Of a DNA stretch of 64,000 nt, positions 41,182 to 46,032 are shown piece by piece (the first letter of the stretch is position 1; each line of letters starts with the position of its first letter). Both the position numbers and the translations under genes were made by a program. Location: positions 310,001 through 374,000 of the forward strand of contig NZ_JAAGOY010000007.1 in NCBI RefSeq assembly GCF_010500215.1. Reading direction: 5' to 3'. This DNA is from Aliiroseovarius sp. PrR006 (GTDB lineage Bacteria; Pseudomonadota; Alphaproteobacteria; Rhodobacterales; Rhodobacteraceae). The notes under the pieces are model-generated. The model worked only from the letters and a program-made list of their open reading frames with translations. It ran no database searches and was not told the DNA's origin.

Positions 41182-42702
41182 TTAGTTGCACGGGTCTGCC
41201 TGGATCAGTCCCCAGCCAAACCGATTGTCCTTTCCAGGACGGCCGAGATCCCGAGACCGTTCACGCAGAACGTTCAGAAGACGCGTCTGTTGCCCACCGG
41301 ATCGTGCGACTTCCTGGGCGATGATCGCAGTGGCAAAAGCCGCAGCATATGAGGTGCCCGAGGCAAAGGTTGTACCCCGCCCGCGTGGCAAAAGCAGATC
41401 GACACCAGGCGCAGAGAAGTCCACCTCGGGGCCGCCATTGGCATGTTTATACAGCCGCTCGCTAGCATCAATCGCGGTGACTGCGATGACGTTCGGATCC
41501 GATGCGGGGTATGCAACAGCATCGCGCCCCCCATTCCCCGTGGCCGCCACCATAATCAGCCCCTTGCGGGCGACGGTTTTGACAATGTCTTCCAAGCTGT
41601 CATTCTTCGCCCCGGCCAAGGACATGTTCACGATGTCGACATTGTTTTCGACCATCCAATTCAGGCCTTGCGCAATGCTTTCCAGCCGCGCAACCGAACG
41701 CCCCCCGTTGCGCGCAAACGCCACGACCGAGAAAATTTCCGCTCCGGGGCTGATACCCTGCGGCAGCTTATCCGTTCCCAATCCGCTGATCAGGGCAACG
41801 ATGCCCGTGGCATGATCGACCGAACCGGTGCGGTCACGCGGAAACAGGACAGAGGTCGATTTGACGGACACGCCCCGCAATGCCGGGTTTGAGGTATCCA
41901 CCGGGCCATCGATCAGCCCAACACGGACAGGGCGTTTTAGCTTGCAGCCTGTATCTGGCGCCAAACCCAAAAGCTGGTTGGCGTAAGCGGTGCGCCCCTT
42001 GGCGGCCCCATACACTGAATGTTTGTCGACGATCACGGAAATGCGCTGCCGGGCCAAACGAGACCGTAGCTCGGCAAGTGACAGGCGTCCGTTCAGATCC
42101 ACCGCAGACATCCGCGCGCCCAGAGCCCCAAGAGAGGTGTTGCGCAGGATGGACACGCCTTCACGAGACATCATGGTCTGGGCCCGGGCCATTTCTTCGC
42201 TGGACCCGATCAGAAGATATTCTGGCCCGCCACTTGGTGCGGCCACTTCATGCCGGGTGGCCCGAACAAGGGGCTGACCATTGGGCGTCCTCAGAAAAAG
42301 GCCCTGCCCTAACCCGGCACCCCGACCCGAGCCTCCACCGCCGCCCGGCCCGGTCACGCTGCCTCCTCCATTCGGATCATCACAAACTCGCGCCGAAGCG
42401 ACGACCTTGGTCGACCCGTTGGGTTCGACATGAACGATGTGAAACTGAACCGAGTAAGGCAATCCGGACAACGGCAGCCTGACACGAATGCGGCTGGTAG
42501 TGTGCGAAATCAACGTGGCGGGCAACAATGTGCCATTTACCCGCGTTCTCAAATTGGGTGTCGCATTCCGTAGGAAACCTGGGGTGGGCACATCAAGTAT
42601 GTCGCCGGGCAGCACGCAATTGCCCTGCTGCGCCTGTGCGCTTGGAACGACACCAAAGAGTGTGATGGCAATCAGGGCAAAAGCAAGGGCAAGGCGCTTC
42701 AC
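41182..42702 (-). CDS. Secreted subtilase (S8 family serine peptidase)
   Basis: 506 residues. A signal peptide ends at about 24 (...AQA). Residues about 29-107 form an Ig-like beta domain, followed by a glycine-rich linker (about 111-135). Residues about 160-230 look like a propeptide. The peptidase domain has Asp265 (VGLIDGP), His297 (DHATG), Asn390 (AATGN) and Ser451 (ASGTSYAAA), so the catalytic set is complete. The start overlaps the anti-sigma gene stop by four bases, and the operon also encodes an ECF sigma factor and a beta-barrel protein. The protease probably acts in the periplasm or at the surface; its target is unknown. Confidence 0.93.
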   Translation of the reverse strand: MKRLALAFALIAITLFGVVPSAQAQQGNCVLPGDILDVPTPGFLRNATPNLRTRVNGTLLPATLISHTTSRIRVRLPLSGLPYSVQFHIVHVEPNGSTKVVASARVCDDPNGGGSVTGPGGGGGSGRGAGLGQGLFLRTPNGQPLVRATRHEVAAPSGGPEYLLIGSSEEMARAQTMMSREGVSILRNTSLGALGARMSAVDLNGRLSLAELRSRLARQRISVIVDKHSVYGAAKGRTAYANQLLGLAPDTGCKLKRPVRVGLIDGPVDTSNPALRGVSVKSTSVLFPRDRTGSVDHATGIVALISGLGTDKLPQGISPGAEIFSVVAFARNGGRSVARLESIAQGLNWMVENNVDIVNMSLAGAKNDSLEDIVKTVARKGLIMVAATGNGGRDAVAYPASDPNVIAVTAIDASERLYKHANGGPEVDFSAPGVDLLLPRGRGTTFASGTSYAAAFATAIIAQEVARSGGQQTRLLNVLRERSRDLGRPGKDNRFGWGLIQADPCN

Positions 42703-43292
42703 GGAAGATCCACAGTTTCGAAAATTTCGGTTTCTGACCGCAGCACCCCGGCCAGCAGCGCCAGATCGGTGTCCGGATCAAGCGGAGACAGCCGGTAAAG
42801 GCCGATCGCAGACGGGCCGTCGACGATCACCAGATCATGCATCTGCAAAAGAGATGACATCGAGGCCTGCGTTACATCTGGCCGAAACATCACAACAATA
42901 TTTGCCGCGTCGTCGCTGGACGAGGCCAGTTCATAGACGTCTTCCGACGCGCGAAAGTTGCCGAGCACGGCAAGCAAAGCAAGCGCTGCCGCCAGACCGC
43001 TTGAAAACGACAGAATATAGCGCCGCGCTCTGGATCGCCCGTCCAGAACTTGCTGTGGATCTTCTTCGATGACACGCCGAAGCCGGGCTAGACCCAACTC
43101 TCCGGGGCTCTGCATCTCGGGCTGCTCTTTCACCGTTGCGCGGATGAGGGCAAGCATCTCGGCTTCCTGCCGAAGGGTCGGGTCTTGCTCCATTGCGGCC
43201 TCGACCATGCCCCGCTCTTCTGGCGACAGGGTTCCGTTGACCCAAAAGGGCAACAGCTCGAGGATATGCTGACGGTCTACTTGCTCACTCAT
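42699..43292 (-). CDS. Anti-sigma factor with periplasmic propeptide-like domain
   Basis: 197 residues. Residues 1-75 are cytoplasmic and resemble an anti-sigma domain (HILELLPFWVNGTLSPEERGMVE), but lack the Cys/His zinc ligands of ZAS proteins. One membrane helix lies at about 92-111. The periplasmic part (131-197) has the pattern VVMFRPDVTQASMSSLL...IVDGPSAIGLYRL...LRSETEIFETV. It resembles the short inhibitory propeptides of subtilases by pattern. It overlaps both neighbours by four bases (sigma factor before it, subtilase after it). It probably holds the sigma factor at the membrane until a periplasmic signal acts; this is inferred from position and topology. Confidence 0.8.
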   Translation of the reverse strand: MSEQVDRQHILELLPFWVNGTLSPEERGMVEAAMEQDPTLRQEAEMLALIRATVKEQPEMQSPGELGLARLRRVIEEDPQQVLDGRSRARRYILSFSSGLAAALALLAVLGNFRASEDVYELASSSDDAANIVVMFRPDVTQASMSSLLQMHDLVIVDGPSAIGLYRLSPLDPDTDLALLAGVLRSETEIFETVDLP

Positions 43293-43846
43293 AACGCCAC
43301 CTTTGCATTCATTCTGCCCTGTAGGCAGTGCAACAACAACTTTTTGGCATGGAAAATACGGGTCTTGATGGTCCCTTCAGGAACTGCGGTAATCTCGGCG
43401 ATTTCACGATAGCCCATGTCCTCGTAGAACGCCAATTCGATGGCGTCACGATGGTCGGGTTTCAAACCGTCCAAGCAGATCCGCAAATGCGCCGCATCTT
43501 CCGCAGCCGCGATATGTGCCACCGCGCTTGGCGCGTCATCCACCTGTTCGGGAAGATCATCAGATATGGTCAGACGTGCATTCTTGCGAAACACATCAAT
43601 CACCTTTCGGTACGCAATCGAAAACATCCACGTCTTAACAGCAGATCGCCCTTCAAAAGCGGCCGCCCCTTTCCATACATCTAAAAACACGTCTTGTAGT
43701 ATGTCGGCCGAGAGGAACGGATCGTTCAATTTAATGTTGATAAATCTGTAAAGGGGTTGCTCCATATGGCGATAAAGCGCTTCAATGGCGTTCTTTTCCC
43801 CCGCCCCGATCCGGTGGATCAAAGATTTCAGATCTGCCTCTTTCAT
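43289..43846 (-). CDS. ECF-type RNA polymerase sigma factor
   Basis: 185 residues, the size of an extracytoplasmic-function sigma factor. Region 2 (about 25-95) shows DILQDVFLDVWKGAAAFEGRSAVKTWMFSIAYRK. Region 4 (about 128-178) shows LKPDHRDAIELAFYEDMGYREIAEITAVPEGTIKTRIFHAKK. No extra C-terminal domain is present. It lies nine bases after the beta-barrel gene and overlaps the anti-sigma gene by four. It probably drives its own operon and surface-protein genes elsewhere (inference). Confidence 0.95.
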   Translation of the reverse strand: MKEADLKSLIHRIGAGEKNAIEALYRHMEQPLYRFINIKLNDPFLSADILQDVFLDVWKGAAAFEGRSAVKTWMFSIAYRKVIDVFRKNARLTISDDLPEQVDDAPSAVAHIAAAEDAAHLRICLDGLKPDHRDAIELAFYEDMGYREIAEITAVPEGTIKTRIFHAKKLLLHCLQGRMNAKVAL

Positions 43847-43855
43847 ATCCGCACC

Positions 43856-45739
43856 TTACCGATATACGATGTGTCGAAGATCGCTGCGCAGGGCAATACC
43901 GAATAGCCAACCATCCCCGTCAAGCATCCTTCTTGACCAATCACCCCTCATATATTCTGCGCTGAAGACAAGCGAATGATCCTCGATCAGTGTCAAACCG
44001 AGCTCTTGACGCAGATAGCGGGCGTTCTCATCCGCGCCGTCGCTATACTCTACGATCCCAGCTTCAAATGCATAGTCCCAGAGGCCGGGTACAAGCGTGT
44101 AGTTCAGGCTGGCGGCGGCGCGCGCCTCCCAGAATTTTCCGAGTGTCGAAGTATGGTGCCGAAGGTTCAGCTGCACCGTTGCGTCAAGCCGATCATTGGG
44201 CGCAACCGAGGCCAGAAACTCAAGCCCATGCGCGATTTCGTCCCCATCCGGGGACGAGAGATAGTCCAGATCCTCATAGCTGTAGAGCACCGCATAGCTG
44301 CCGCGTTCAGTGAATTTGTTCATTCCGACGTTAAACGAGGCCAGTTGGTGATCCTGCTCTGGCAAGGCGCCCAGTGGGGTCTCGAGCCGTTCCTGCACAA
44401 ACAGTTCGGACGAGAAATAGAACCTTGCCCCGTTCAGAAATCCGCCGGTGAACACATCCGGGGCGTATGTTGTTTCAAAGGACAGACGGGTCAGGCGATC
44501 CACGGCTTGGTCTGGGCTTCCACCCTCATTTGTCCGGGCCTGTTCGGCCCCAAGGGCCCAGCTCCATTCATGGCCCGCATAATCCACTTCAACCCGTTTG
44601 GCCCGTTCTCCGACGATCAGGTTCGGGTTGAGCGGCGAATGGAAATCCTGATCAATCTGCGAATAGCCCAGACCAAGCGATAATGCGTCGGGAATTTCAG
44701 GCGGCGTCAGACGGACTGTCAGTTCCGCTTCAAGCGCTTGTCCTGAACGCCATGTGCCACCATCAAACCACGCGGTCTCGTCCGCAGACAACAAGATATC
44801 CATCCTGTCGCCGAACACAGGCGCGGACAGCGACACACCTTTGCCCCGAACACTGCCAACCGACCCGTTGGGCAGATCCCCTGCCCGCCCATCATAGGCG
44901 GTGAAACCAAGGCGCAAACCGCTGTTCAAAAACGGCGCGATCTGAGTTGTCGCCCCGTACACCCGATCATTCCAGTCGTCCACGCCGATCAGGTTTTCCG
45001 TGCTGGTGGACAGGCTGGGTTGCAAAACGAACGCCGCGACCTCGTCCCGGTTGGCTTCATCCACGAAGCGTAAAGACACCCCGCGGCGCGACGCCTGGTC
45101 AATCAGGTTTCCGTTCATGTTGTAGTAATGCGAGCCCAACCGCAGGAACAGGTTCCCGCCAAGCACCGTGTGTCGGGTTTCCAGATAGTGATCATCAATC
45201 GCGTAGTATTCGCCGGTGACAGGATCCGACAACGCCGCCCGCGAGAAGCTTAGACCGCCACGCAGAAGGCCATTCCGGATGTCGAAATCCAGCCGCCCCC
45301 CGAACCCGGTATAGACCTTGTGTTCATCGCGATTGCCCACCACTCCACTTTCGGCCTGAAGGGCGACATAGGCTTCTGTGGTACCGGCCGCGACAAGCGT
45401 GAATTCCCACCGGCCGATGAAAACATCCCCGCGCGGTGTCTCTTCATACAGCACAATCTCATGCGTATTTCCGGTCAGATCTGTGGGCACCTTCAGACGA
45501 AGCGTTGTGCCGGACAGGTCCAGAGTGGTCCAGACCTGTTCGCCGTCTATCTCGACTTTCAACCGCGTCAGAGGAAGCAATTGGTCAAGCTCGATCAACA
45601 GGATTTCGCCGGGTTGCGTATCACCCAGTGATACATGATCGCTTGCGGGTGCTTCTGCTGGCAGCAAAAAAATCAGCAGTGCGGCGATCCACGCCCCAAA
45701 TCCACCCGCTCTCTGCCCGCGATATCTTTTCACCAACAT
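43856..45739 (-). CDS. Predicted outer-membrane beta-barrel protein of the sigma-factor operon
   Basis: 627 residues. A signal peptide ends at about residue 32. Residues about 44-115 form a small beta domain (LTRLKVEIDGEQVW, TTLRLKVPTDLTG). The remaining 500 residues alternate polar and hydrophobic positions with many aromatic girdle residues (YVALQAESGVVG, RLDFDIRNGLLRGGLSFS, AEYMRGDWSRRM), as in outer-membrane barrels. I do not recognise a named family. The ATG at 45739 is hard against GAGGG; the in-frame GTG two codons later (45733) has better spacing and may be the true start. It is the first gene of the operon with the ECF sigma factor. Confidence 0.8.
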   Translation of the reverse strand: MLVKRYRGQRAGGFGAWIAALLIFLLPAEAPASDHVSLGDTQPGEILLIELDQLLPLTRLKVEIDGEQVWTTLDLSGTTLRLKVPTDLTGNTHEIVLYEETPRGDVFIGRWEFTLVAAGTTEAYVALQAESGVVGNRDEHKVYTGFGGRLDFDIRNGLLRGGLSFSRAALSDPVTGEYYAIDDHYLETRHTVLGGNLFLRLGSHYYNMNGNLIDQASRRGVSLRFVDEANRDEVAAFVLQPSLSTSTENLIGVDDWNDRVYGATTQIAPFLNSGLRLGFTAYDGRAGDLPNGSVGSVRGKGVSLSAPVFGDRMDILLSADETAWFDGGTWRSGQALEAELTVRLTPPEIPDALSLGLGYSQIDQDFHSPLNPNLIVGERAKRVEVDYAGHEWSWALGAEQARTNEGGSPDQAVDRLTRLSFETTYAPDVFTGGFLNGARFYFSSELFVQERLETPLGALPEQDHQLASFNVGMNKFTERGSYAVLYSYEDLDYLSSPDGDEIAHGLEFLASVAPNDRLDATVQLNLRHHTSTLGKFWEARAAASLNYTLVPGLWDYAFEAGIVEYSDGADENARYLRQELGLTLIEDHSLVFSAEYMRGDWSRRMLDGDGWLFGIALRSDLRHIVYR

Positions 45740-46032
45740 TCCCTCGTTTGCGTTTGAGGGTTACTAACGGGACGTCGCAAATTCTCAAGAAAAAACAGGT
45801 TTCTATCGTCTTCGGTTTGGTGAAGTGTCTCTGATACGTCAATCAAAACTATCTATGGGTGAATGACTATCCCAAGGCTACCGCTTAAGCCTTTTTTCAT
45901 CACGACGTTCGGGTTGCGAACGTCCGTTGACAAATGTGGCGGTGTTTTGCCGGACGGACGCCCCGATCTTCGCGGCGCTTTCTTAGAGGATACGTGATCG
46001 ATGGGATGTGTCTGACCCACCCACGCTATGCG
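45740..46032. other. Intergenic region holding the sigma-factor operon promoter
   Basis: 293 bases with no gene. The promoter of the beta-barrel/ECF operon must lie here; I could not identify a -35/-10 pair with confidence. A perfect inverted repeat GACGTTCG (45904-45911) with CGAACGTC (45917-45924) lies 109 bases beyond the D-lactate dehydrogenase stop and may be its terminator or an operator. Confidence 0.4.

What the first reader, a model, noticed from the sequence alone, without database searches (positions are those of the whole stretch)
41182..45739. Four-gene surface operon: beta-barrel, ECF sigma, anti-sigma, subtilase
Seen: four minus-strand genes, the last three overlapping by four bases and the first nine bases away, encode a signal-peptide beta-barrel, an ECF sigma factor, a single-span anti-sigma factor and a secreted subtilase with a complete Asp/His/Asn/Ser set. 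Known: ECF sigma factors are usually released by proteolysis of the anti-sigma factor or by a surface signal. Inference: the protease and barrel are both the regulated output and the sensor, forming a closed circuit at the envelope. I know of no named system with this composition. The target of the protease and the inducing signal are open.
Basis: partly seen in the sequence, partly recalled or inferred. Interest (0 to 1): 0.85.

Follow-up and report, generated by a model that had tools for sequence, protein, structure and literature searches.

The report
Anti-sigma factor with protease-prodomain-like sensor
A marine bacterium carries an operon in which a membrane switch protein that holds a gene-control factor inactive seems to wear a copy of the 'safety cap' of the protein-cutting enzyme encoded next to it, which suggests that the enzyme itself flips the switch.

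Summary
The four minus-strand genes are real and spaced as described; the window is Aliiroseovarius-like. Synteny reaches far beyond close relatives: all 17 non-own loci found with the anti-sigma protein in 149 family genomes have an ECF gene and an S8 subtilase nearby. In class and phylum samples, 34 of 37 anti-sigmas with the same periplasmic C-domain have a subtilase within about 4 kb, against 4 of 21 without it. The barrel-like gene is optional, but every copy found in two genome samples lies at or within about 6 kb of such a locus. Pfam's fervidolysin-prodomain model matches 12 of 58 such proteins, mostly below its cut-off, and 0 of 21 controls; the window's copy does not match. Profile comparison with the subtilases' own prodomain regions is suggestive. 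AlphaFold models were unusable. Most likely the subtilase docks on this domain and sets anti-sigma stability. Polarity, signal and the barrel's role are open.

The parts
45761..45789 (-). Most conserved upstream block, CTTGAGA-N14-GTTAGTAA; candidate promoter, sigma factor unknown
   Evidence: Conserved in all 4 Aliiroseovarius loci aligned; one exact site in the own genome, 0 for the reversed-pattern control
43856..45739 (-). Secreted protein with an N-terminal domain and a beta-strand-rich remainder, probably an outer-membrane beta-barrel; likely true start GTG at 45733
   Evidence: no family or PDB sequence match above threshold; fold not predicted here
43289..43846 (-). ECF sigma factor, 185 aa
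   Evidence: Sigma70_r2 and Sigma70_r4_2 over cut-off
42699..43292 (-). Single-span membrane anti-sigma factor, 197 aa
42957..43019 (-). Hydrophobic span of the anti-sigma factor, about residues 92-112
   Evidence: Hydropathy maximum at residue 93
42702..42911 (-). Periplasmic C-domain of the anti-sigma factor (residues 128-197), prodomain-like, ends the protein
   Evidence: PF22148 in 12 of 58 family members but not in the window copy; hhalign
41182..42702 (-). Secreted S8 subtilase, 506 aa, with Asp265/His297/Asn390/Ser451
42379..42621 (-). Extra N-terminal domain of the subtilase (about residues 28-108), beta-sandwich-like, two Cys
   Evidence: Only part of the subtilase model with moderate confidence; weak Ig-like Foldseek matches, none at E<=0.001
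41989..42240 (-). The subtilase's own putative prodomain region (about residues 155-238)
   Evidence: Aligned across homologues before the catalytic domain; no Pfam prodomain match in 21 subtilases
41209..41928 (-). Peptidase S8 catalytic domain (residues 259-498)
   Evidence: PF00082

Best explanation
The core is a three-gene module: ECF sigma factor, membrane anti-sigma factor and secreted subtilase. The anti-sigma's periplasmic domain is a second, membrane-tethered, prodomain-like domain for the neighbouring subtilase. Once secreted and active, the subtilase docks on it much as on its own prodomain, and that contact sets the anti-sigma's stability. My leaning is that free active protease starts the anti-sigma's destruction and so releases the sigma factor. 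In the window's version a barrel-like protein and an extra subtilase domain were added, probably to work with the protease at the outer membrane. Shown by sequence: the operon, the families, the conserved linkage, its association with this C-domain, and the prodomain resemblance of that domain in relatives. Inferred: docking, polarity, autoregulation, role of the barrel.
For: ECF and subtilase genes accompany 17 of 17 non-own anti-sigma loci in the family sample, in two strand arrangements. S8 within about 4 kb of 34 of 37 anti-sigmas with the C-domain against 4 of 21 without it: p 2.6e-8 by locus, 18 of 20 against 4 of 18 genera, p 4e-5. PF22148 (fervidolysin N-terminal prodomain) matches 6 of 21 and 6 of 37 C-domain anti-sigmas at E<=1, best 6e-6, L116 over the curated cut-off, and 0 of 21 controls. 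hhalign of the C-domain against the subtilases' pre-catalytic regions: 56.5%, E 1.1e-4, 0 of 300 column shuffles above 2.4%. In 59 profile-hit ORFs the domain lies within 28 residues of the C-terminus.
Against: The window's own anti-sigma has no PF22148 match and most members' matches are absent or, where printed, below cut-off (4 of 10, none above). hhalign with 21 sequences was not significant (4.1%), and 56.5% is moderate. No PDB sequence match; the AlphaFold models are unusable for this domain. 3 of 37 C-domain loci have no S8 neighbour (L103, L125, L136), and 4 of 21 loci without the domain have one. Distance correlation does not single out the C-domain: partial r 0.21 for C-domain and subtilase, 0.32 for the N-domain and subtilase. 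No binding, cleavage or expression data exist here.
Confidence: 0.45

Rival explanations
1. Homeostatic polarity: subtilase bound to the prodomain-like domain protects the anti-sigma factor.
For: The domain ends the protein with few residues after it, as in a cleaved, product-bound prodomain. FoxA's signalling domain protects FoxR in a different system (PMC11637429, abstract).
Against: Nothing tested here separates it from the trigger polarity.
Confidence: 0.25
2. The C-domain is a small alpha/beta sensor of something else, and the subtilase is merely a regulated output encoded beside its sigma factor.
For: The window copy has no significant prodomain match; 4 loci couple a subtilase to anti-sigmas with a different periplasmic region.
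Against: The linkage is concentrated on anti-sigmas with this C-domain, and it is these that match the prodomain model.
Confidence: 0.22
3. The barrel-like protein is the signal receptor and contacts the anti-sigma factor, as TonB-dependent transducers do in cell-surface signalling.
For: It is co-encoded and has an extra N-terminal domain; copies found in two genome samples lie at or near loci with this anti-sigma factor.
Against: No plug, receptor or signalling-domain family in 10 members; most of the C-domain loci examined show no such gene.
Confidence: 0.06

Closest known systems
RsiV / sigma-V of Bacillus subtilis (PMC4183432, abstract and outline seen)
   Same: An ECF anti-sigma ectodomain as a direct receptor for an enzyme, whose binding leads to anti-sigma proteolysis.
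   Different: There the ligand is lysozyme from outside; here a co-encoded subtilase and a prodomain-like domain are proposed.
FoxR/FoxA TonB-dependent cell-surface signalling (PMC11637429, abstract and outline seen)
   Same: An ECF sigma factor, a membrane anti-sigma factor and an outer-membrane protein with an extra N-terminal domain.
   Different: The barrel-like protein here matches no plug, receptor or signalling-domain family, and a subtilase is part of the module.
PrtI/PrtR of Pseudomonas fluorescens (passages of PMC2194791 and PMC2997014)
   Same: ECF sigma factor and transmembrane partner linked to protease regulation.
   Different: PMC2194791 reports no protease gene near the related ecfB in Burkholderia or near the PrtI-like locus of P. 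putida; PrtR acts as an activator. Whether PrtR has this C-domain was not tested.
ECF54 group (passages of PMC8999054)
   Same: Subtilase domains in the conserved neighbourhood of an ECF sigma factor.
   Different: [quoted passage not shown] ECF group membership was not tested here.
Fervidolysin N-terminal prodomain, Pfam PF22148
   Same: The C-domain of several anti-sigma relatives matches this model; one printed match is above cut-off.
   Different: Here it ends a membrane anti-sigma protein instead of preceding a protease domain.

Membership tests
ECF sigma / membrane anti-sigma pair | Sigma regions 2 and 4 | tested here: met
   PF04542 and PF08281 over cut-off
ECF sigma / membrane anti-sigma pair | Adjacent single-span protein with an N-terminal anti-sigma domain | tested here: met
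   zf-HC2 sub-threshold, NCBIfam anti-sigma E 7.3e-9 below cut-off, one hydrophobic span; binding not tested
S8 subtilase | Catalytic Asp/His/Asn/Ser in an S8 domain | tested here: met
   PF00082; residues invariant in 21
Subtilase prodomain (PF22148) | Score over the curated cut-off, window's anti-sigma C-domain | tested here: not met
   No match listed for the window protein at E<=1
Subtilase prodomain (PF22148) | Score over the curated cut-off, family members | tested here: inconclusive
   12 of 58 match at E<=1; L116 over cut-off (24.7 against 21 bits); 4 printed are below
Subtilase prodomain (PF22148) | Binds or inhibits the cognate protease | not testable with these tools
   Needs purified proteins
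TonB-dependent cell-surface signalling | TonB plug, receptor and signalling domains in the barrel | tested here: not met
   No such Pfam match in 10 members
Outer-membrane beta-barrel | Barrel fold | tested here: inconclusive
   No later hydrophobic helix and no Cys, but alternation z about 1; no family or PDB sequence match; fold not predicted

The most novel reading that the evidence does not exclude
A class of ECF switches spread through Proteobacteria senses a protease directly: the anti-sigma factor carries a tethered decoy of the subtilase prodomain, so the level of free, mature protease in the periplasm is read by the same lock-and-key contact that normally keeps the protease inactive.
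Probability: 0.45. Interest if true: 0.85.

Novelty: new variant of a known kind. Interest (0 to 1): 0.68.

Why it matters
Many ECF systems have no known input (recalled; PMC8999054 passages say that most ECF groups lack experimental data). If the anti-sigma ectodomain is a prodomain decoy, the input of a whole class of such systems would be named at once, a cognate secreted subtilase, and could be tested with two purified proteins. It would also be a new use of a protease prodomain: as the sensor of a transcription switch.

Tried and rejected
The first hhalign of the anti-sigma C-domain against the subtilase prodomain region, with 21-sequence alignments, was not significant (4.1%; 100 shuffles reached 3.1% at most). 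Only the enlarged sets gave a signal. In the first shuffle control of the enlarged set, one of 200 shuffles (seed 146) scored 134.7 on 13 columns, far above the real value. Re-run with fresh output files it was again the only one above the real value, an alignment of 13 gapped end columns; the next best was 2.1%. With match columns only, 0 of 300 reach the real value. I treat the outlier as an artefact.

The order of elements drawn for the C-domain (strand-helix-strand-strand-helix) carries no weight at that confidence. Foldseek on the subtilase model gave no match at E<=0.001, only weak Ig-like ones to its N-domain.

A homology between the N-domains of the barrel-like protein and the subtilase was a guess by eye; I printed both, ran no profile test and do not claim it. 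Distance correlation on 53 loci plus the window was not discriminating. The conserved upstream block has one exact site in the genome, so no regulon could be inferred. The generic promoter and terminator scan was at shuffle level. A search of plasmid records with the anti-sigma protein gave no match, and the viral-contig scan no relative. A family-model search for PF22148 in the own genome gave no match.

Literature: ten searches of the open-licence library listed no paper that I recognised, from titles and abstract starts, as describing an anti-sigma factor with a subtilase prodomain or this gene set; I read passages of four papers and the abstracts of two. The large ECF reclassification paper is not held, so a description there cannot be excluded.

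Selection: for I fetched 60 loci: all 34 whose match reached model position 175 or beyond from the N-terminal side, one C-terminal-only match, and 25 N-terminal-only matches chosen mostly by rank, not at random. Two (L128, no C-domain hit; L133, E 0.003) were left out of both groups; both have an S8 neighbour. Some loci in both groups are cut short by contig ends.
Full report
What is there. The window lies in a 3.2 Mb genome close to Aliiroseovarius: three named Aliiroseovarius contigs carry a subtilase 92-94% identical and the whole four-gene order. The ECF and subtilase assignments are firm, the anti-sigma assignment good, the barrel assignment only plausible. A search of the own genome with the subtilase finds only this locus. 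The likely start of gene 1 is GTG at 45733 rather than ATG at 45739, because the ATG is absent from L022 and L023 and lies directly behind the GAGGG.

Conserved linkage. Searching 149 genomes of the family with the anti-sigma protein gave matches in 17 genomes including the own one. The 17 non-own loci all have an ECF gene and an S8 subtilase nearby, the farthest subtilase about 0.8 kb off. In 5 of these 17 the anti-sigma gene is on the other strand from the ECF gene (L032, L034, L036, L037, L039), so the linkage has survived rearrangement. These loci were found with the anti-sigma protein alone, without selecting for the subtilase.

Wider sampling and a control. A profile of 21 anti-sigma factors was run on 337 class genomes (44 with a match) and 349 phylum genomes (52 with a match; the samples overlap). 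I fetched 60 loci: 34 with a near full-length match, one C-terminal-only match, 25 N-terminal-only matches. Scored with separate profiles, 37 carry the periplasmic C-domain, and 34 of these have an S8 subtilase within about 4 kb (exceptions L103, L125, L136). Of 21 without it, 4 do (L139, L145, L148, L154). Fisher p is 2.6e-8 by locus and 4e-5 by genus, 18 of 20 against 4 of 18, genera counted by hand from the kinship labels. L128 and L133 were ambiguous and left out of both groups; both have an S8 neighbour. By those labels L114, L125, L131 and L136 lie outside the window's class.

The barrel-like gene. Relatives were seen in 10 of the 59 loci examined (L021-L024, L029, L099-L102, L104), from four families by the kinship labels. 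Reverse search: in 149 family genomes the protein is found in 3, each time at the trio. In 337 class genomes it is found in 7; in 6 it sits beside the anti-sigma locus, and in the seventh (G481) it lies about 6 kb from it, with anti-sigma and subtilase in one block and barrel, a secreted protein and ECF in a second block about 4 kb on. Five of the ten sequences of the search profile come from these class genomes, so those hits are expected; what counts is that no copy turned up elsewhere at this threshold. The barrel is thus an optional add-on tied to this module. Subtilases of the barrel-bearing loci carry an extra N-terminal domain with two cysteines (by eye), but so do L105 and L114.

The anti-sigma ectodomain. 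About 70 residues after the membrane span form a conserved domain whose consensus contains VxFxPDAT, IVDGPSA and GxYRL. In 59 profile-hit ORFs it lies within 28 residues of the C-terminus. Its layout and ending recall a subtilase prodomain. Independent support: Pfam PF22148, the fervidolysin N-terminal prodomain, matches 6 of 21 and 6 of 37 of these proteins at E<=1, best 6e-6; in the 5 matches printed with positions it aligns to this domain. L116 is above the curated cut-off (24.7 against 21 bits); the 4 printed are below. It matches 0 of 21 control anti-sigmas, 7 of which match RskA_C instead. The window's protein itself does not match. Comparing 60 C-domain sequences with the region before the catalytic domain of S8 proteins in the fetched loci (including the 4 from control loci) gave hhalign 47.5% (all columns) or 56.5% (match columns), with 0 of 300 column shuffles above 2.4%; smaller alignments gave nothing, and one shuffle in an earlier control was an outlier. 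No solved structure matches by sequence, and AlphaFold gave no usable model. I therefore call the domain prodomain-like, not proven.

How it may work. Subtilase prodomains bind their mature protease tightly and are slowly cut by it (recalled). A membrane-tethered copy on an anti-sigma factor whose operon encodes the protease would let the cell read free mature protease. I lean to the trigger polarity, in which protease engagement leads to loss of the anti-sigma and release of sigma, but the homeostatic polarity is close behind; the lack of residues after the domain, as in a cleaved product, would fit the latter. RsiV with lysozyme shows that an anti-sigma ectodomain can be a direct receptor for an enzyme (PMC4183432, abstract); FoxR with FoxA shows that a partner can instead protect it (PMC11637429, abstract).

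Promoter. The most conserved upstream block among the four Aliiroseovarius loci is CTTGAGA-N14-GTTAGTAA at 45761-45789. It occurs once in the genome as an exact pattern. Whether the operon's own sigma factor uses it is not known.

What is known. The searches listed under Tried and rejected showed no description of this gene set or of a prodomain on an anti-sigma factor. A review notes subtilases near ECF54 genes, but in a setting without anti-sigma factors (PMC8999054, passages). PrtI/PrtR links an ECF pair to protease production, but PMC2194791 reports no protease gene beside the related loci in Burkholderia and P. putida (passages). Membership: it is an ECF/anti-sigma system and contains an S8 subtilase; it is not TonB-dependent cell-surface signalling by the tested domains; prodomain membership is not met for the window copy by Pfam and inconclusive for the family.

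Verdict. The stable unit is the trio rather than the quartet, and the prodomain-like ectodomain makes a direct protease-to-anti-sigma contact the likeliest mechanism: 0.45 with the trigger leaning, 0.25 for the homeostatic polarity.

Noticed in passing
L029:7166-8374, L099:2304-3497, L100:5249-6454, L101:2353-3528, L102:2164-3459, L104:2088-3431, L168:13568-14782: A secreted protein of about 400 residues, Fn3/Ig-like at most weakly in Pfam, lies between barrel and ECF in these loci but not in the window.
   Followed up: partly
L139, L145, L148, L154: A second kind of ECF/anti-sigma pair, whose anti-sigma has another periplasmic region (a shared LxFRxxxGxxCR-like stretch by eye), stands beside an S8 subtilase gene on the opposite strand.
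   Followed up: partly
L125:3250-4056: At a C-domain locus without a subtilase, a secreted caspase-like protein (by eye) follows the anti-sigma gene.
   Followed up: no
L032:7434-9428, L037:2993-4672, L039:7640-11047: Proteins with RTX-like repeats (by eye) lie beside trios in which the anti-sigma gene is turned round.
   Followed up: no
L123, L124: Here the subtilase gene precedes the ECF gene, a third gene order.
   Followed up: no
window 43856-45739, about positions 16-123 of the family profile: The N-terminal domain of the barrel-like protein weakly matches CopC structures (E 0.064), consistent with a small beta-sandwich.
   Followed up: no
G691 (same genus as the window): A genome of the same genus shows no match to the anti-sigma profile at E<=1e-5, so the operon may not be universal in the genus.
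   Followed up: no
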